DNA of 41,022 nucleotides, from the NCBI GenBank assembly GCA_021776315.1, contig JAJFGD010000197.1:1-41022 (forward strand), given 5' to 3'. The DNA comes from Hyphococcus sp. (GTDB lineage: Bacteria > Pseudomonadota > Alphaproteobacteria > Caulobacterales > Parvularculaceae). Positions 16,322-40,756 of this stretch are shown here, one piece after another. The notes below the pieces were generated by a model, which was not told the DNA's origin, did no database searches, and worked only from the letters and a program-made list of their open reading frames with translations. Position 1 is the stretch's first letter. Each line of letters starts with the position of its first letter. The translations under genes were made by a program, and so were the position numbers.

Positions 16322-17056
16322 GTGCTCCTACGCCGAATAACAGAACATGTCAGAGCCCAGAATTGGACGGCAGTGACGCTCGATTTCTTCATTGTTGTTG
16401 TTGGCGTGTTTATTGGTATTCAAGTTGCCAATTGGAATGATGCTGGGCGAGAACGCCTTAGTGAATCCCAATATCTCCAGCGTATCGCCAATGAAATTGA
16501 ATTGACGATTACCCATTTACAAGAAGAGCGTGAATTCAGCGAGGAAGCACGCGCTATGATCGACGTGTTTGTGGATGAGCTTTATCGTGACGGCGCTTCA
16601 GATGACGACCTTTTGACGGCGACGAACGGTTATCTTTCGACCGGTGCATTTTTTGCCAATTTCCGGCCCATTCGCACAACCTTTGACGATATCGTTTCCA
16701 CGGGTAACTTTGAAATCATAAAGAATGGGGCAATCCGGACTGACCTCATCAAGCTATATGCGCATTACGAAGACGCCAACAGCACCATCGAAAGCAATAT
16801 TGATTGGATACAGCAAGGCGAGGATCGCATCTATTATGATTTCGATGCGTTTCGCTTTGATACGCGTACAGAGCATCTTTTTGACAATGTGCCAGCACCA
16901 GCCCTTGCCAATGATGTGCGCGAACAACGCGACCTATTGCGCCGTCATGCGGCGTTTCATTATTGGCTAAAAGTGCGGTCCATAGAGCTATTTGATCAGA
17001 TTGAACCAGAGGCCGAAACCGTCCTTAATCTCATCAAGGAAGAGCTGAACAACTAA
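16322..17056 (+). CDS. DUF6090-like single-pass membrane protein, solitary paralogue of the 36-40 kb array
   Basis: GTG start; MLLRRITEHVRAQNWTAVTLDFFIVVVGVFIGIQVANWN N-terminus, nearly the same as the array members; mid-protein 'TFDDIVSTGNFEIIKNGAIRTDLIKLYAHY'. Confidence 0.8.
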   Translation: MLLRRITEHVRAQNWTAVTLDFFIVVVGVFIGIQVANWNDAGRERLSESQYLQRIANEIELTITHLQEEREFSEEARAMIDVFVDELYRDGASDDDLLTATNGYLSTGAFFANFRPIRTTFDDIVSTGNFEIIKNGAIRTDLIKLYAHYEDANSTIESNIDWIQQGEDRIYYDFDAFRFDTRTEHLFDNVPAPALANDVREQRDLLRRHAAFHYWLKVRSIELFDQIEPEAETVLNLIKEELNN

Positions 17057-32684: not shown

Positions 32685-35006
32685 TTATCTACCGTTGCGC
32701 TCTGCGGCCCATGTTTCGTAATTCGCTTTCATCACGAGATAGCGTGGATCATCACGAATGCCGTCAAAATCGGGATCCACCTTGATAGAAAGATATTGTG
32801 ACGGACCAACGAGACGCGTGATCTTGTCCAGATATTCAAATGCGGAATCTCGATCACCGGCACGCTCGAAAGCGATCGCAATCGCGTAATGTCTGTTTAA
32901 GTCCGAAAACGCATCTGGAGTGATACTCGCTTCAAAATCTGCGACGGCGGCACGCACGCCCGCAAGGTCGCCCATCAAGCCTGGAAGTTCGACGGGCAGG
33001 TATGTTGCATTAGCGCTCCAACCGGCGGGGTATGGATTATCTGACGCCTTAATCCGTTCATTGATTTCATTGAGTAAGGCTCGCGATTCTTCTTCCAACC
33101 CCATGGCAGCCAGCGCCTCAGCTTTCGTCAGCGGAAAGATTTCGGGATTGCCCGGATAAACGAGCGGATCTGCAGGGAATGACTCCAACGCATAGGAGAT
33201 TTTTTCCGAATCTCTCGCCGCTATTGCGATGATAAGTCGGAAAAAATAATAAGATGTCCAGCCTGAACCGGGGGTCGTCTCGCTGATCAGCGTCCAGGCG
33301 CGCTCAAACTCACCTGACTCAAGCATGATCCTGACATCCATCGTGAAAACACGCTCGCTTGTAGGATCGAGCGCCCGAGCATGGTCCACGATAGCCTGTG
33401 CGTCTTCAAAACGGTTGAATTGAATATATGACTGCACCAGTTGCCACGGTATTTCTTCTGATAACGGGTCGAGACTGTTCGCGCGTCTGAGGGCCGTCGC
33501 GCTTTCATCAAACCGTCCCGCACGGCGGGCGACATATCCTTTAAGCGCCCAGACTTCAGCATTATTGGGCGCTTTGGCGAGTGCGCGATCAATTACGGTG
33601 TCAGCGCGCTCATAATCGAGAAAGCCCCAATAGTGAAAATAACCGCGCGCAACTAATGTTTCGACCTCGTCTGGCATCAGAGCCTCGGCGCGATCGATGT
33701 TGGCGCGCGCCTTTTCTCGTAATGCTGTGTTGCCCGCATCAATTCTCCAAAATATAGAGAGTTGCGCCTCTGCCTTGGCGGCATAAGCGGCAGCAAAATC
33801 CGGGTCTGCTGCTATTGCTTCATCGAATTCTTTTATCGCGTCGTTGAATTTATCTTCAGTCAGAAAGCTCGCCTCTAACAGGCCTTTGCCACGAATATAC
33901 GCGTCATATGCGGCAAGACTTTGTGTCGGTAAAATCTCCAGCTCCGCTTCATCCGCCTCGGAGAGCACCGAGTTGAGTGCCACTGCAATCGCTTTGGTGA
34001 TTTCTGATTGAATGTCAAAAATATTCTCAGCGGTCAGTTCGCGATCATACGTCTCGGCCCATAAATGCAAATCGCTGTCGGCGTCAATCAATTGCACATT
34101 GATGCGCACCCGGCTGCCGGCGCGTTGCACAGCCCCCTCCATTATCGTTGCGACGCCAAGCTCGCGCGCAATGTCAGGGATTTTTCGTTCCGTACCGGCA
34201 TAGCCGATGACAGACGTGCGCGAGATCACATGCATATCTGCGATCTTGGAAAGACGCGTCAACAAATCATCATGCATGCCTTCGGTGAAAAACGCGTCGT
34301 CCGGATCGGGGCTGCGATTGGCAAACGGTAAGACGGCGATGGATTTTTCCGGACGAGGTGTGAGGGTTTGCTCTGGGACCAGATCAATGCCGGCGGAACC
34401 TGAAACAGTGCTTGTTACATCTGAAGAAGCCGCCGCTTCGGGTTCGGCTCCAGTTCCAGACGGTACAACCCGTTCTGTATCGTCGCGCATAACGACAAAT
34501 GCGATGACGCTCATAAACGCCAAGGCCGAAAGGGCCACGCCGACAAGCTTGGCCGAGATTTTCGGCCTGCCAGCATGTGTCGCCAGCGCAGCAGCAGGCA
34601 TTGTGGGAGCGGCCTCAGCGGGTTGGCCGGCGTCAATCTTCAATGCAATCGAACGCTTTAAATCGTCATGAGCGGTTTTGGTGTTTGATGAAAAATCAAT
34701 CGCATGAAACTGTTTAAACCCGATCGGCGGCAGTGATCCGTCTAGACTAAGAGAGACGAGTTTGCCCGCTTCAGCGGCCAGCCCTGCTTCGTCCTTCACC
34801 CAACGCGATTCAATTGATTGTTTTGACCAGGCGACAATCACCGCCTTCGCCGCTGCAAGCTCTTTTTCAATGTCTTTGGAAAATTCCGAACCACCCGCGA
34901 CATGTCGGTCCCACCAGACTGAATAGCCTTCGGCTTCAAGCGCCGATACGAACTTCTCGATCTTCGCTCGGTCAGCGCGGGCATACGATATAAAGATGTC
35001 GGTCAA
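32685..35006 (-). CDS. TIR domain - TM - TolB-like domain - TPR protein
   Basis: TIR 'MTDIFISYARADRAKIEKFVSALEAEGYSVWWDRHV...VIVAWSKQSIESRWVKDEAGLA...GFKQFHAIDFS'; TM 'LVGVALSALAFMSVIAFVVM'; 'KSIAVLPFANRSPDPDDAFFTEGMHDDLLTRLSKI...IMEGAVQRAGSRVRINVQLIDADSDLHLWAETYDRE'; C-terminal TPR repeats. Confidence 0.9.
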   Translation of the reverse strand: MTDIFISYARADRAKIEKFVSALEAEGYSVWWDRHVAGGSEFSKDIEKELAAAKAVIVAWSKQSIESRWVKDEAGLAAEAGKLVSLSLDGSLPPIGFKQFHAIDFSSNTKTAHDDLKRSIALKIDAGQPAEAAPTMPAAALATHAGRPKISAKLVGVALSALAFMSVIAFVVMRDDTERVVPSGTGAEPEAAASSDVTSTVSGSAGIDLVPEQTLTPRPEKSIAVLPFANRSPDPDDAFFTEGMHDDLLTRLSKIADMHVISRTSVIGYAGTERKIPDIARELGVATIMEGAVQRAGSRVRINVQLIDADSDLHLWAETYDRELTAENIFDIQSEITKAIAVALNSVLSEADEAELEILPTQSLAAYDAYIRGKGLLEASFLTEDKFNDAIKEFDEAIAADPDFAAAYAAKAEAQLSIFWRIDAGNTALREKARANIDRAEALMPDEVETLVARGYFHYWGFLDYERADTVIDRALAKAPNNAEVWALKGYVARRAGRFDESATALRRANSLDPLSEEIPWQLVQSYIQFNRFEDAQAIVDHARALDPTSERVFTMDVRIMLESGEFERAWTLISETTPGSGWTSYYFFRLIIAIAARDSEKISYALESFPADPLVYPGNPEIFPLTKAEALAAMGLEEESRALLNEINERIKASDNPYPAGWSANATYLPVELPGLMGDLAGVRAAVADFEASITPDAFSDLNRHYAIAIAFERAGDRDSAFEYLDKITRLVGPSQYLSIKVDPDFDGIRDDPRYLVMKANYETWAAERNGR

Positions 35007-36831: not shown

Positions 36832-37578
36832 GTGCTTCTTCGCCGTATCACTGAGCATGTCAAAGCGCAGAACTGGTTCGCGGTTGGGCTGGACTTCATC
36901 ATCGTCGTTGCGGGTATCTTGATCGCATTTCAAATAACAGAGTGGAATGAAGGGCGCTCTAATACCATAGAGGAGCGTGAGCTTCTTCAGCAGTTGAGTA
37001 TAGAATTTGAGCAGATCGAAGCAGGCGCAAAGGATAGTCTTGATTATCAACATAAGGTAATCGCTGGCTTAACCACCATTGCCGTCACCCTTGATGCCGG
37101 ACAGCTTGACGAAAAAGATCGCGCTCTTTTCGAACACGGCCTTAAATATGGCTACACCCTTTATACAAGTTCAGACCGGTCGACTGTACTTGGTGAGATC
37201 ATCTCTAGCGGCAAATCCAGCTTGTTTAAGAATAAAGACTTGTTGCGTGAGCTCATGCGCTATGATGCCTATTTAAATGAGTTTGCGAGTGCCGAAGACA
37301 TTATCTCCGAACAACAAACGGCCTATCTTCCAAATTTCACTAGCAACTTTACCTATGACTTGGAGAAAACCATTTTGATTAGCGGCGCTTCATTTAGGGT
37401 TTCACCCATTGGGACCTATGATATTAGTGCGATGGTCAAGGACCCGGCGTTTCGTGACGCTGTCTATGAGCTTCGCGAAACACATATCATGTATACAAAC
37501 TGGCGTAGAAGAATTTTTGAACGAATCCAGAAAATCCGCATACTGCTAGATGCAGAAATCACCGCAAGTGGGACCTAA
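36832..37578 (+). CDS. DUF6090-like array protein G1
   Basis: GTG start after GGGGG; 'MLLRRITEHVKAQNWFAVGLDFIIVVAGILIAFQITEWNEG'; mid-motif 'VLGEIISSGKSSLFKNKDLLRELMRYDAY'. Confidence 0.85.
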   Translation: MLLRRITEHVKAQNWFAVGLDFIIVVAGILIAFQITEWNEGRSNTIEERELLQQLSIEFEQIEAGAKDSLDYQHKVIAGLTTIAVTLDAGQLDEKDRALFEHGLKYGYTLYTSSDRSTVLGEIISSGKSSLFKNKDLLRELMRYDAYLNEFASAEDIISEQQTAYLPNFTSNFTYDLEKTILISGASFRVSPIGTYDISAMVKDPAFRDAVYELRETHIMYTNWRRRIFERIQKIRILLDAEITASGT

Positions 37579-37580
37579 TA

Positions 37581-38327
37581 ATGCTTCTTCGTCGCATCAC
37601 AGAACATGTCAAAGCGCAGAACTGGACGGCGGTGGCGCTTGATTTTGTCATTGTTGTTGTCGGTGTGTTTATTGGTATTCAAGTCGCAAACTGGAACGGT
37701 GATCGGCTCGCTCAGTCCCGTGAAAACGCAATTTTAGCTCAGCTTGAAGAAGAGTTTTTGGAAATACAAACAGCGATTGATTCACAAATTGGATTTCGCA
37801 GGCAGTATATTGAAAGTTTGGGTGCGCTGATCGAAGTCCTGGAAAGCAAGGATGACGTTGCAGACGAGGCCATTGTCAAAGTTGGCTTAGAAAACGCAAC
37901 AACAACAGGTCGTTGGCCGCCCCAATCCTCAGCCTATCTTCAGCTTATGGCAAATGGGGAGCTTGCGACGCTTTCCAGTGAAAAACTGCAAAAGCTTTTG
38001 GTTCGATATGATGCACGGCGTGAGCGTGATGCGCATTTGATTCCCGAATTGTTACGACTGGTCATAGCGGAGCTTTCTTTAAATGCTGGCACTGATCGGG
38101 CAATTACAATCAACCCAAATATGGGGGCTGCAATCGACGAAAATGTCCCTGCGGACTATCACCCGGGAGACCTAATTCGATCATTTAATCTGGAACAACT
38201 CCGCCAATATGAGCAGCGATATGAGGCCATGTATATTTTACATGGCACATTGGAACTCGCGGAGATAAGACAGTTGGAAATTGTGAAGCAAATCTTGGAA
38301 CTTTTGACGACAGAGACGAATCTATGA
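37581..38327 (+). CDS. DUF6090-like array protein G2
   Basis: 'MLLRRITEHVKAQNWTAVALDFVIVVVGVFIGIQVANWNGD'; mid-motif 'AYLQLMANGELATLSSEKLQKLLVRYDAR'. Confidence 0.87.
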   Translation: MLLRRITEHVKAQNWTAVALDFVIVVVGVFIGIQVANWNGDRLAQSRENAILAQLEEEFLEIQTAIDSQIGFRRQYIESLGALIEVLESKDDVADEAIVKVGLENATTTGRWPPQSSAYLQLMANGELATLSSEKLQKLLVRYDARRERDAHLIPELLRLVIAELSLNAGTDRAITINPNMGAAIDENVPADYHPGDLIRSFNLEQLRQYEQRYEAMYILHGTLELAEIRQLEIVKQILELLTTETNL

Positions 38328-39106
38328 TCCTTCGTCGCATCACCGAACATGTCAAAGCGCAGAACTGGTTCGCGGTTGGGCTGGACTTCATCATCGTCGT
38401 TGTTGGTGTCTTTATTGGTATTCAAGTCTCGAACTGGAACGCAGCACAACAACGGGCCGCGACCGCTGATGTGTTTGAAGCACGTTTGATTGGCGATATT
38501 CGCAATGAAATTGGCGTTATCGAAAACCGCATTGAAATTTACACTGACATTCTCACCATTGCTGATCGCTTGGCTGTCGAGATTACCGGTCCGGCTGACG
38601 CCCTTGGGCCTGATTTTTTGCGTGACGCCCATTTTGCAACATCACTCTGGCGTTTTCGGCGCACGCAAGACACTTATGATGAACTTTTAACAAGTGGGGA
38701 GCTTGGTTTAATCGCCGATACAAAAGTTCGGTCTGAGTTGTCCCGCTATTATCGCGATTTGGACGCCGTCGTTGGGATTTGGGATAAACCGACGAAGTTC
38801 GTCGACTTTGTTCGAATGTACATTCCCGCAAGCGTTCAACAGCAGATACGTCGGCACTGTCAAGAATATAGGGACGGTGAATTTGAGAAGGTTCACTATG
38901 CCATCAAAAAGGAGTGTCAATTGGATGTATCCGACGCCCAATTGCGGATGGCCCTTGACGCATTGCTCGATCCGAGTGCGACGGGCGCAGGTAAGTTTAG
39001 CGTCATGCTCAACGAATTGATCGGAGAGACCAATTTCAAGGTCGACCAGCTCAAACGCAAACGCGGCTCCGCTCAAGACCTCCTCGCACTGATGGAGGCG
39101 CGCTAA
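38324..39106 (+). CDS. DUF6090-like array protein G3
   Basis: ATGA overlap with G2; 'MILRRITEHVKAQNWFAVGLDFIIVVVGVFIGIQVSNWNAA'; mid-motif 'TYDELLTSGELGLIADTKVRSELSRYYRD'. Confidence 0.87.
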   Translation: MILRRITEHVKAQNWFAVGLDFIIVVVGVFIGIQVSNWNAAQQRAATADVFEARLIGDIRNEIGVIENRIEIYTDILTIADRLAVEITGPADALGPDFLRDAHFATSLWRFRRTQDTYDELLTSGELGLIADTKVRSELSRYYRDLDAVVGIWDKPTKFVDFVRMYIPASVQQQIRRHCQEYRDGEFEKVHYAIKKECQLDVSDAQLRMALDALLDPSATGAGKFSVMLNELIGETNFKVDQLKRKRGSAQDLLALMEAR

Positions 39107-39876
39107 TGCTCCTTCGTCGCATCACTGAACATGTCAAAGCACAAAACTGGTTCGCGGTAGGGCTGGACTTCATCATCGTCGTTGTTGGTGTCTTTATTGG
39201 TATTCAAGTTGCAAACTGGAATGCGTCGCGCGCGGACCATGATCTCGCCAATCGCTATGTGATCCAGCTGGCCGGCGATATCCGTTCGGATATCGTCGAT
39301 ATAGAAACCGGCTTACGGACATCCACATGGCGCTATGCAGCGCTATCGACGCTGCTGGAAAAAGCGGGCTTACCGCTGCCGAATAGTACAGCTAACCCGG
39401 AACGGACGTTTGTAATGCCAACCGTGACATTTGAAAATGAATACCCGGCGGCGCTGATCAGCGCAGCTTCTTACACAAGGTTTTTAGACAGTGATCGGCC
39501 GGCCTATTCCTCGCTGGTTAGTGCAGGCAACGCCAACCTGCTCGACAAGATGCCATCATTTCACTGTGTTCTGGCTTATTATGCAGCGCATGATGAATCT
39601 AGAAAATTCGAAGACAGGCTTCTGCTTTTTCGCACCGACCTTGTGCGTGCTCAGCATGATGCTGGTGTTTCGATCGCCGGTGATCTGACGGAACAAGAAG
39701 TTATCGAAAAAATAAAGTCAAACGAACCATTCGCGGCAACAATTGCGAGTTATCGGGTTTTTTCCTATTTTCATCTTAACGTGCTGGGGAGTTTGCATCG
39801 CCAAGCGGAAGAGTTGCTCGTCACTCTGGAAACTAACGGGTCAGCATGCGGCAATAGTGGGCCACCTGCCTTATGA
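39106..39876 (+). CDS. DUF6090-like array protein G4
   Basis: TAATG overlap with G3; 'MLLRRITEHVKAQNWFAVGLDFIIVVVGVFIGIQVANWNAS'; mid-motif 'AYSSLVSAGNANLLDKMPSFHCVLAYYAA'. Confidence 0.87.
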   Translation: MLLRRITEHVKAQNWFAVGLDFIIVVVGVFIGIQVANWNASRADHDLANRYVIQLAGDIRSDIVDIETGLRTSTWRYAALSTLLEKAGLPLPNSTANPERTFVMPTVTFENEYPAALISAASYTRFLDSDRPAYSSLVSAGNANLLDKMPSFHCVLAYYAAHDESRKFEDRLLLFRTDLVRAQHDAGVSIAGDLTEQEVIEKIKSNEPFAATIASYRVFSYFHLNVLGSLHRQAEELLVTLETNGSACGNSGPPAL

Positions 39877-40646
39877 TCCTTCGTCGCATCACCGAACATG
39901 TCAAAGCGCAGAACTGGACGGCGGTCGCGCTCGACTTCGTCATTGTTGTTGTCGGTGTGTTTATTGGTATTCAAGTCGCAAACTGGAATGACGCGCGGGC
40001 GGACAAAAAAACGGGCCGCGAATATATCGCGCGAATCCAACAAGAATTGCTGGCGAACCAGCGCGATATGAACACGCGAATAGCCTATTTCACTAGGATA
40101 AAAAATAAGGGGCTCGACGCGCTAAAGGGATGGAACCAGCCGCCCGATACATTGGGCGAGCAATTTATCATCGATAACTATTACGCTACCTTTGTGCTGA
40201 GGCGGCCAATTGGCAAAGATACCTATAATGAATTGTTATCGGTCGGTGCCATAAATTCAATTCCGGATGTCGTCGTTCGTCAGCGTATTGCGGAATATTA
40301 TCGCGCGAGCGAGGGGGCCGAGTTCTTTTTCACGACGATACCTCCCTATATGGATGCCCTGCGCACCGCTATGCCTTACGACGTACAAGCGGCACTCCGC
40401 GAGCGAGGATGCGTCGGTACATATTATGCCGATGACACAGGCGCAGCCACCGCGATCTTGCCTGAAACATGCAATCCAAATTTAACGGACGAACAAATTT
40501 CGTCGGCCATCAATAGGCTGGTTGAGGCAGACCTTGAGCAAGAGCTCGGGCGTGCTCTGGCCGACATCGATGTCAAATTGTTATTGTTTCATACGGCGAT
40601 TGCGCGCTCGCAGAACCTTTACGATTTTCTTGAGGAGACAAAATAA
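39873..40646 (+). CDS. DUF6090-like array protein G5
   Basis: ATGA overlap with G4; 'MILRRITEHVKAQNWTAVALDFVIVVVGVFIGIQVANWNDA'; mid-motif 'TYNELLSVGAINSIPDVVVRQRIAEYYRA'. Confidence 0.87.
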   Translation: MILRRITEHVKAQNWTAVALDFVIVVVGVFIGIQVANWNDARADKKTGREYIARIQQELLANQRDMNTRIAYFTRIKNKGLDALKGWNQPPDTLGEQFIIDNYYATFVLRRPIGKDTYNELLSVGAINSIPDVVVRQRIAEYYRASEGAEFFFTTIPPYMDALRTAMPYDVQAALRERGCVGTYYADDTGAATAILPETCNPNLTDEQISSAINRLVEADLEQELGRALADIDVKLLLFHTAIARSQNLYDFLEETK

Positions 40647-40756
40647 TGCGCCTGCGTCGCATCGCAAGGTGCGATTACGCGAATGACCGAAGATTAGACT
40701 GTCAATGCAAGCAGCTAAGTTGGTGCCGATTCTGGCTTCAGCGCATTACAATATAG
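40646..40756 (+). pseudogene. 5' remnant of a sixth array gene (36-codon ORF)
   Basis: TAATG junction with G5, preceded by GAGGAG; ATGCGCCTGCGTCGCATCGC gives MRLRRIARCDY..., compared with MLLRRITEH. Homology stops after about 7 codons. Confidence 0.55.

What the first reader, a model, noticed from the sequence alone, without database searches (positions are those of the whole stretch)
36832..40756. Tandem array of 'constant membrane anchor + variable ectodomain' proteins
Five same-strand genes (G1-G5), each about 250 aa, plus a 5' remnant of a sixth. They share a nearly invariant N-terminus: a basic amphipathic lead, one TM helix, then 'QVANWN'. After that the sequences diverge until little more than a short central motif is recognisable. 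The N-terminal charge (LLRRITEHVK) predicts N-in/C-out topology, so the variable 200 residues are probably periplasmic. The anchor resembles the DUF6090 N-terminus known mainly from Bacteroidetes (from recall). A constant anchor with diversified outward-facing domains in one operon looks like a diversifying receptor, immunity or hetero-oligomer set. No function is known to me, and this is my best candidate for an undescribed system.
Basis: partly seen in the sequence, partly recalled or inferred. Interest (0 to 1): 0.85.

Follow-up and report, generated by a model that had tools for sequence, protein, structure and literature searches.

The report
Swappable periplasmic protein cassettes on shared anchor
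This bacterium carries about 35 copies of one membrane-anchored gene, many in operon-like rows, in which the start of the gene (the anchor) is kept the same within each genome while the outward-facing part is traded freely among distantly related bacteria; this looks like a collected bank of binding proteins, possibly immunity proteins against rivals, although no function has been shown.

Summary
Observation confirmed: five overlapping genes (G1-G5, 36832-40646) share a near-constant 40-residue anchor and diverge afterwards; a sixth start (40646) is an anchor stub.

The window is one array of a large family: about 35 copies in this 3.3-Mb genome, 0-28 in congeneric genomes, arrays of up to 22 in one 20-kb stretch. 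The family is patchy in Alpha- and Gammaproteobacteria and was not found in phages, viral contigs or plasmids.

Main result: anchor and ectodomain have different histories. Anchor trees follow genome of origin (71 label changes against 143 shuffled); the ectodomain tree does not (140 against 143). Only 4 of 36 local ectodomains have their nearest relative in this genome; 8 have it in gammaproteobacterial records. Breakpoints between near-identical ectodomains lie in the anchor. One syntenic site (gatB-PALP) is empty in two species and holds one to at least eight family cassettes in others. Many arrays end in in-register anchor stubs.

Ectodomains are periplasmic (342 even against 14 odd cysteine counts), helical, under purifying selection, without universal catalytic residues.

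Best explanation: a horizontally collected bank of periplasmic binding proteins recombining through a coding anchor. An immunity or decoy role is likeliest but inferred; it works like T7SS immunity-gene strings, membership not shown.

The parts
36832..37578 (+). G1: anchor (residues 1-40) plus periplasmic helical ectodomain, 248 aa, GTG start, SD-like GGGGG upstream
   Evidence: nearest ectodomain is L032:6389-7126 in the same genome, 48%
37581..38327 (+). G2: anchor plus ectodomain, 248 aa; an orphan ectodomain lineage (best hit 23%)
38324..39106 (+). G3: anchor plus ectodomain, 260 aa, two-cysteine subfamily; start overlaps G2 stop by 4 nt (ATGA)
39106..39876 (+). G4: anchor plus ectodomain, 256 aa; ectodomain 80% identical to L064:3316-4086 (Marinicaulis sp. 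MAG, different locus and neighbours) and 46% to L065:10001-10768 (Marinicella litoralis, Gammaproteobacteria)
   Evidence: AlphaFold2 pLDDT 86.6
39873..40646 (+). G5: anchor plus ectodomain, 257 aa, two-cysteine subfamily; AlphaFold2 pLDDT 95.3, pTM 0.84
40646..40756 (+). terminal anchor stub: start codon overlaps the G5 stop, about 7 codons of anchor homology (21 nt), then unrelated sequence to a stop
16322..17056 (+). solitary family member in the same window, 244 aa; its ectodomain orthologue (66%) is a member of an 8-gene array locus in L079
36832..36948 (+). anchor block of G1 (codons 1-39); equivalent blocks open every gene and are the stretch in which recombination breakpoints fall

Best explanation
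Each gene is a cassette: a start-anchor block (about 120 nt: basic lead, one TM helix, QVANWN) followed by a periplasmic helical binding domain. Cassettes are fused into operon-like rows in which each cassette usually carries the ribosome-binding site of the next and stop and start codons overlap. Homologous recombination and gene conversion within the anchor block let cassettes be added, lost and reshuffled without breaking reading frames, and keep the anchors alike within a genome, while ectodomains are acquired from a pool shared by distant proteobacteria. Shown by comparison: array structure, dissociated histories, breakpoints in the anchor, occupied and empty sites, terminal stubs, periplasmic topology. 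Inferred: homologous recombination (rather than a dedicated enzyme) as the agent, and co-expression. Function (inferred): the array is a bank of inner-membrane-anchored periplasmic immunity or decoy proteins, each ectodomain neutralising a particular incoming toxin or other periplasm-crossing agent, and collected because having more variants protects against more attackers. The evolutionary layer I hold at about 0.85, the immunity-bank function at about 0.35-0.4; the confidence given is for the whole statement.
For: Copy number: about 36 anchor matches in this genome; 0 to 28 in others of the genus. Arrays reach 22 genes in 19.9 kb (L165). Mean pairwise identity within arrays is 0.68-0.88 for the anchor and 0.22-0.25 for the ectodomain. 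Same-codon use at identical anchor residues is 0.615 within a contig against 0.402 expected, 0.462 against 0.363 between genomes; ectodomains are at expectation (0.365 against 0.361); the excess falls off at codon 41-42. Label changes on trees of 191 members from 14 genomes: anchor DNA 71, anchor protein 79, ectodomain 140, shuffled about 143. Nearest ectodomain is in the same genome in 0.09-0.13 at every score cut, chance 0.08. Breakpoints: L102:833 against L112:7658 is 0.52 upstream, 0.82/0.88 in the anchor, 0.97-0.99 after it; L082:16814 against L118:3064 is 0.47, 0.55/0.93, 0.96-0.97. gatB-PALP site: 109 and 122 bp in G003 and G015; 1, 2, 4, 5 family cassettes in IP29b_bin80, G007, G010, G016 and 8 in this genome's PALP-side contig. 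Junctions: 203 of 229 overlap by 4 or 1 nt; SD-like GGAG/GAGG/AGGA in 61% against 7% in a control stretch. Stubs at array ends in exact register, also before PALP in three species. Periplasm: cysteine parity 342:14. Purifying selection. Only G125 exceeds 72% outside the anchor among 351 members, which suggests binding rather than catalysis. A similar mode is described for membrane-bound, outward-facing TipC and for EsaG immunity strings (PMC9484751).
Against: No toxin or effector gene was recognised among the array neighbours (112 immediate neighbours scanned; only the 25 commonest Pfam families were listed). No recombinase stood out there. No T6SS sheath gene in 40 relatives including this genome, which does not exclude attack by others but removes a home-grown cognate system. 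dN/dS shows no positive selection. Part of the anchor conservation is plain protein constraint: solitary members have anchors as well conserved as array members (median score 97 against 96). Stubs vary in length (about 13-75 nt), so there is no single crisp recombination site. Several genomes are MAGs, so a few cross-class matches (L082 with L118) could be binning errors.
Confidence: 0.42

Rival explanations
1. Expanded family of periplasmic sensors or ligand-binding adaptors: each ectodomain binds a different envelope or environmental ligand and the conserved anchor signals to or docks on one common inner-membrane partner; exchange is merely how the family spreads.
For: Anchor protein is strongly conserved even in solitary members, suggesting a common partner; ectodomains are under purifying selection; TolB/TPR-type proteins recur near arrays (22 such neighbour proteins in one cluster; TIR-bearing forms at window 32685-35006 and L034:4206-6551 in this genome).
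Against: Copy number swings from 0 to 36 between species of one genus and array composition is not conserved, unusual for a signalling family; no constant partner gene in the neighbour census.
Confidence: 0.25
2. Anti-phage bank: membrane-anchored periplasmic proteins that block phage genome entry (superinfection-exclusion-like), each specific for one phage group.
For: Topology fits and a collection logic fits; absence of universal catalytic residues.
Against: No relative in 50,697 phage records, in viral contigs or in plasmids, though exclusion genes are usually carried by phages; array neighbours are not enriched in defence genes; no informative PHROG match.
Confidence: 0.15
3. Selfish or nearly neutral cassette accumulation: the anchor block is a convenient recombination patch and cassettes persist without a collective function.
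For: Unrelated cargo carries the anchor start (L168:8630-10075, L081:8649-9548, L033:7314-8180, L115:4452-5705); truncated stubs are common.
Against: Ectodomains have open frames with dN/dS 0.07-0.3 in diverged pairs, and most junctions keep translational coupling with an SD.
Confidence: 0.1
4. Hetero-oligomeric complex in which G1-G5 are fixed subunits.
For: Co-directional overlapping genes sharing an anchor.
Against: Neither number, order nor subtype is kept between species; single cassettes exist alone.
Confidence: 0.04
5. Antigenic or phase variation with one expression site and silent donors, or a diversity-generating retroelement.
For: Constant 5' part and variable 3' part resemble cassette systems.
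Against: Nearly every copy has its own start codon, usually an SD, and a coupled start; ectodomain differences are old and spread over the whole domain, not confined to a hypervariable patch.
Confidence: 0.04

Closest known systems
Type VII secretion immunity-gene strings (esaG, tipC, tsaI; Garrett et al. 2022, PMC9484751)
   Same: Tandem strings of non-identical paralogues with conserved sequence blocks through which homologous recombination gains, loses and hybridises genes (shown for esaG and tipC); TipC is membrane-bound, faces outward and reaches 15 copies; the tsaI homology block covers the N-terminal TM region.
   Different: Those sit beside a toxin locus in Firmicutes and vary within species; here no toxin is adjacent, arrays sit at many sites in Proteobacteria, and ectodomains are exchanged across classes. 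Sequence homology was not tested directly; no PDB chain matched convincingly (best E 0.21).
Acquired interbacterial defence (AID/rAID) islands of Bacteroidales (PMC12247911)
   Same: Arrays of orphan immunity genes without their toxins, collected horizontally.
   Different: rAID arrays have a recombinase and (from general knowledge) hold several unrelated immunity families; here one homologous family shares one anchor and no recombinase stood out next to the arrays.
DUF6090 (Pfam PF19578)
   Same: Same anchor motif and N-terminal region; several loci of this genome exceed the Pfam cut-off, and 51 of 64 aligned relatives match at E<=0.01.
   Different: G1-G5 themselves score below the cut-off; the match is mostly to the N-terminal part. 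No paper in the held library mentions DUF6090.
Integron gene-cassette arrays
   Same: Rows of exchangeable, co-oriented genes at a fixed site that can be empty.
   Different: No integron integrase above cut-off in 30 relatives; the repeated element is coding (start plus TM anchor), not attC. attC sites were not searched for.

Membership tests
DUF6090 (PF19578) | Score above the Pfam gathering cut-off (23.5 bits) | tested here: not met
   G1-G5 14.6-17.8 bits; other members in the same genome reach 31.6, so the family as a whole is a divergent DUF6090 relative
DUF6090 (PF19578) | N-terminal TM segment matching profile positions 2 onwards | tested here: met
   all five align from residue 22 to profile position 2
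Immunity-gene strings (T7SS type) | Tandem non-identical paralogues with conserved recombination blocks | tested here: met
Immunity-gene strings (T7SS type) | Cognate polymorphic toxin encoded at the locus | tested here: not met
   no toxin family among the 25 commonest neighbour families or among the window neighbours scanned; rarer families were not all listed
Immunity-gene strings (T7SS type) | Protein neutralises a toxin | not testable with these tools
   needs expression and competition assays
AID/rAID islands | Associated tyrosine recombinase | tested here: inconclusive
   no recombinase among the 25 commonest neighbour families; single occurrences are not excluded
Integron | IntI-type integrase in the genome | tested here: not met
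   0 of 30 genomes above the TIGR02249 cut-off
Integron | attC sites between cassettes | not tested
   most junctions overlap by 1-4 nt, leaving no intergenic room
Own T6SS effector-immunity system | T6SS sheath gene (VipB/TssC) in the genome | tested here: not met
   0 of 40 genomes, E. coli control positive
Phage superinfection-exclusion genes | Carried by phages or prophages | tested here: not met
   no match in phage records; no relative confirmed in viral contigs

The most novel reading that the evidence does not exclude
A previously undescribed chromosomal gene-cassette system of Proteobacteria in which the recombination element is itself coding: start codon plus TM anchor. Any ectodomain, and occasionally unrelated secreted cargo, recombined behind it is at once in frame, translated from the SD of the previous cassette and delivered to the periplasm. 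Such arrays would be an open-ended, horizontally traded repertoire of periplasmic defence proteins.
Probability: 0.35. Interest if true: 0.88.

Novelty: new variant of a known kind. Interest (0 to 1): 0.74.

Why it matters
It gives a clear case in which two halves of one protein have separate evolutionary histories: an anchor that follows the host genome and an ectodomain that is essentially panmictic across two bacterial classes. If the immunity reading holds, these marine and environmental bacteria, which lack the tested T6SS marker, carry large shields built from one scaffold, and the ectodomain pool would be a catalogue of what attacks the proteobacterial periplasm. If it does not, the arrays are still a natural, self-consistent way of shuffling periplasmic domains without breaking an operon, and the gatB-PALP site gives a comparative system with empty and filled states to study it.

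Tried and rejected
Fold search of both AlphaFold models against PDB and of the G5 model against BFVD: nothing at E<=0.001; weak hits are generic long helices (OspC, BAR, ClyA, flagellin) and were not used. PDB sequence search: no credible hit. NCBIfam: no credible hit. Viral contigs, phages, plasmids: none. T6SS link: none. Integron: rejected. Defence-island link: PADLOC hits among neighbours are single and scattered. A sharp recombination site at the end of stubs was looked for and not found: homology in stubs ends anywhere from about 13 to 75 nt. Positive selection in ectodomains: not seen; the highest ratios come from pairs with almost no synonymous change and are not reliable. Synteny of the window's own flanks in relatives: the 125-aa flank protein and the PD40 neighbour had no match in the loci of other genomes held, so the window's own site could not be shown empty elsewhere; the AraC-type flank has homologues but in contexts that were not compared. 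The stub control did not exclude array regions, so its six high-scoring random windows are an overestimate of chance.
Full report
WHAT IS THERE. The window carries five overlapping same-strand genes (36832-40646). Residues 1-40 are nearly constant (MLLRRITEHVKAQNW..AV.LDF.IVVVGVFIGIQVANWN) and hold 27 of the 30 columns invariant in all five; G2-G5 are 22-27% identical to G1 overall. At DNA level the first 135 nt repeat at 76-84% identity to the G4 copy. The G5 stop overlaps a sixth start that keeps about 21 nt of anchor homology and then runs into unrelated sequence. A solitary member lies at 16322-17056.

HOW BIG THE FAMILY IS. The genome holding the window (3.3 Mb, 275 contigs) has about 36 anchor matches on this contig and 13 others. 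Other genomes of the genus have 0 to 28; one genome of another family in the order has 22 members in 19.9 kb. Nearest named relatives are Marinicaulis/Parvularculaceae MAGs, so the host is most likely a Parvularculaceae alphaproteobacterium (inference). Related arrays occur in Hyphomonadaceae-type Alphaproteobacteria and in Gammaproteobacteria such as Marinicella, Kangiella, Wenzhouxiangella and Lysobacterales. Distribution is patchy: 5 of 197 genomes sampled in the class and 13 of 299 in the phylum, counts that include this genome and close kin. Nothing was found in phage records, viral contigs or plasmids.

ANCHOR AND ECTODOMAIN HAVE DIFFERENT HISTORIES. I collected 356 distinct full-length members. 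The ectodomains appear to form one homologous family (profile searches from each window gene reach all 276 sequences offered, although the shared anchor contributes to that; direct ectodomain hits are, where only 4 of 306 had none). Within arrays the anchor is 68-88% identical and the ectodomain 22-25%. Where two anchors share a residue they also share the codon more often than codon usage predicts (0.615 against 0.402 on one contig; 0.462 against 0.363 between genomes), whereas ectodomain codons are at expectation; the excess disappears at about codon 41. On trees of 191 members from 14 genomes, genome labels change 71 times for anchor DNA and 79 times for anchor protein but 140 times for ectodomains, against about 143 for shuffled labels. 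FastTree on short or divergent alignments is noisy, so I checked nearest neighbours directly: the nearest ectodomain is from the same genome in 9-13% of cases at every score cut (chance 8%), the nearest anchor in 55%. Of 36 local members only 4 have their best ectodomain match in this genome, 8 have it in records I grouped as Gammaproteobacteria. Two isolates of different classes share an ectodomain at 67% (Marinicella litoralis L065:11556 and Algimonas L106:10001), so cross-class sharing is not only a MAG artefact.

WHERE RECOMBINATION HAPPENS. Aligning near-identical ectodomains with their flanks shows identity at random level upstream (0.37-0.60 in most pairs), paralogue level in the anchor and 0.9-1.0 after it in the closest pairs, for example L102:833/L112:7658 and L082:16814/L118:3064; in L102:1645/L112:8470 only the first 60 nt of the anchor differ markedly, as expected of a conversion tract. 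Between the two related MAGs L102 and L112 a gene with 96% identical ectodomain sits at the fifth array position in one and the first in the other. G4 itself has an 80% ectodomain orthologue in L064 with different neighbours and different flanking genes.

A SITE WITH EMPTY AND FILLED STATES. gatB and a PLP-dependent enzyme gene are neighbours in most genomes of the genus examined. The gap is 109 and 122 bp in G003 and G015, holds one family cassette in IP29b_bin80, two in G007, four in G010, five in G016, and eight family cassettes plus one anchor-led foreign gene in this genome's PALP-side contig, with assorted small genes instead or in addition elsewhere; an M20-type peptidase stands alone at this site in G005 and lies between cassettes in this genome. 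In this genome gatB and PALP are on different contigs, so the site itself is inferred from the PALP side.

CASSETTE ENDS AND FOREIGN CARGO. Of 229 junctions, 134 overlap by 4 nt and 69 by 1 nt; 61% carry GGAG, GAGG or AGGA just upstream of the next start against 7% in a control stretch. At array 3' ends 36 of 125 show an anchor-start stub at 65% identity or more over 36 nt, and 28 of the 30 best begin exactly at the last stop codon (offset -4, -1 or 0). Three species keep such a stub before PALP, in one of them after an unrelated hydrolase-like gene. The lead of the anchor is also found at the start of unrelated secreted proteins (L168:8630-10075, L081:8649-9548, L033:7314-8180, L115:4452-5705). 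I read stubs and grafts as footprints of recombination in the anchor; random truncation of dead copies may explain part of them, since stub length varies.

THE PROTEIN. Ectodomain cysteine counts are 0, 2, 4 or 6 in 342 proteins and odd in 14, as expected for disulfides in the periplasm. AlphaFold2 models (G5 pLDDT 95.3, pTM 0.84; G4 pLDDT 86.6, pTM 0.77) show a continuous helix from the TM segment to residue 86-87 followed by further helices, with a small pair of strands (E183-186, E192-195) between the conserved cysteines of the G5 type. No solved or viral fold matches at E<=0.001. Only one residue outside the anchor, G125 in G5 numbering, is conserved in most members (88%; the next are below 73%), so a common catalytic site is unlikely. 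Orthologous ectodomains evolve under purifying selection, dN/dS mostly 0.07-0.3. Solitary members have anchors as conserved as array members, so the anchor is also constrained as a protein.

WHAT IT MOST LIKELY DOES. Collected, co-oriented, individually constrained, apparently non-catalytic, periplasm-facing domains with rapid turnover between species fit a repertoire against varied external agents. The nearest described behaviour is that of T7SS immunity strings, where conserved blocks let paralogues recombine and where TipC is membrane-bound and outward facing (PMC9484751), and of orphan-immunity arrays (PMC12247911). No toxin stood out next to the arrays and the genus lacks the T6SS marker tested, so immunity stays an inference. 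A sensor/adaptor family is the main rival.

LIMITS. Loci were fetched with one anchor as bait, which favours similar anchors but not particular ectodomains. Many genomes are MAGs. Genome groups in the tree test were assigned by record, and the Alpha/Gamma split by record title. Neighbour families beyond the 25 commonest were not listed.

Noticed in passing
window 32685-35006 (-); G000:C222:12623-25320; L034:4206-6551: TIR-TM-TolB-like-TPR protein near the array; this genome has a tandem row of about five or six such TIR proteins on contig C222, a second array with constant N-terminus. TolB/TPR relatives with a different conserved membrane lead (ELKRRNVFRVAVAY) directly border arrays in several Gammaproteobacteria.
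   Followed up: partly
L067:5855-6397, L068:2264-2857, L031:3774-4343, L079:3267-3776, L160:12284-12838: Further kinds of small single-TM proteins without convincing Pfam match ('RQNASLTR' type and 'TLENIYYIGQ' type) travel inside the same arrays, some with ATGA coupling to anchor genes.
   Followed up: partly
L033:4338-5759 and L177 (G005 gatB-PALP interval): The same M20-type peptidase (by sequence resemblance) stands alone at the gatB-PALP site in one species and between cassettes in this genome.
   Followed up: partly
L079:7541 and L157 array end: Two array-end stubs carry the same CAG to TAG nonsense change at anchor codon 13; chance, shared descent or selection to stop translation was not separated.
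   Followed up: no
downstream of arrays in L096, L079, L159, L034, L038, L100: Similar short motifs (GCAACC.TAACC.GACATT, AAAGCGGACAT) recur after several array ends; probably a dispersed intergenic repeat of these genomes.
   Followed up: no
L165 (G031:C1:308000-327900): 22 family genes in 19.9 kb on a nearly complete genome of another family in the order; a good locus for experiments if the organism is in culture.
   Followed up: no
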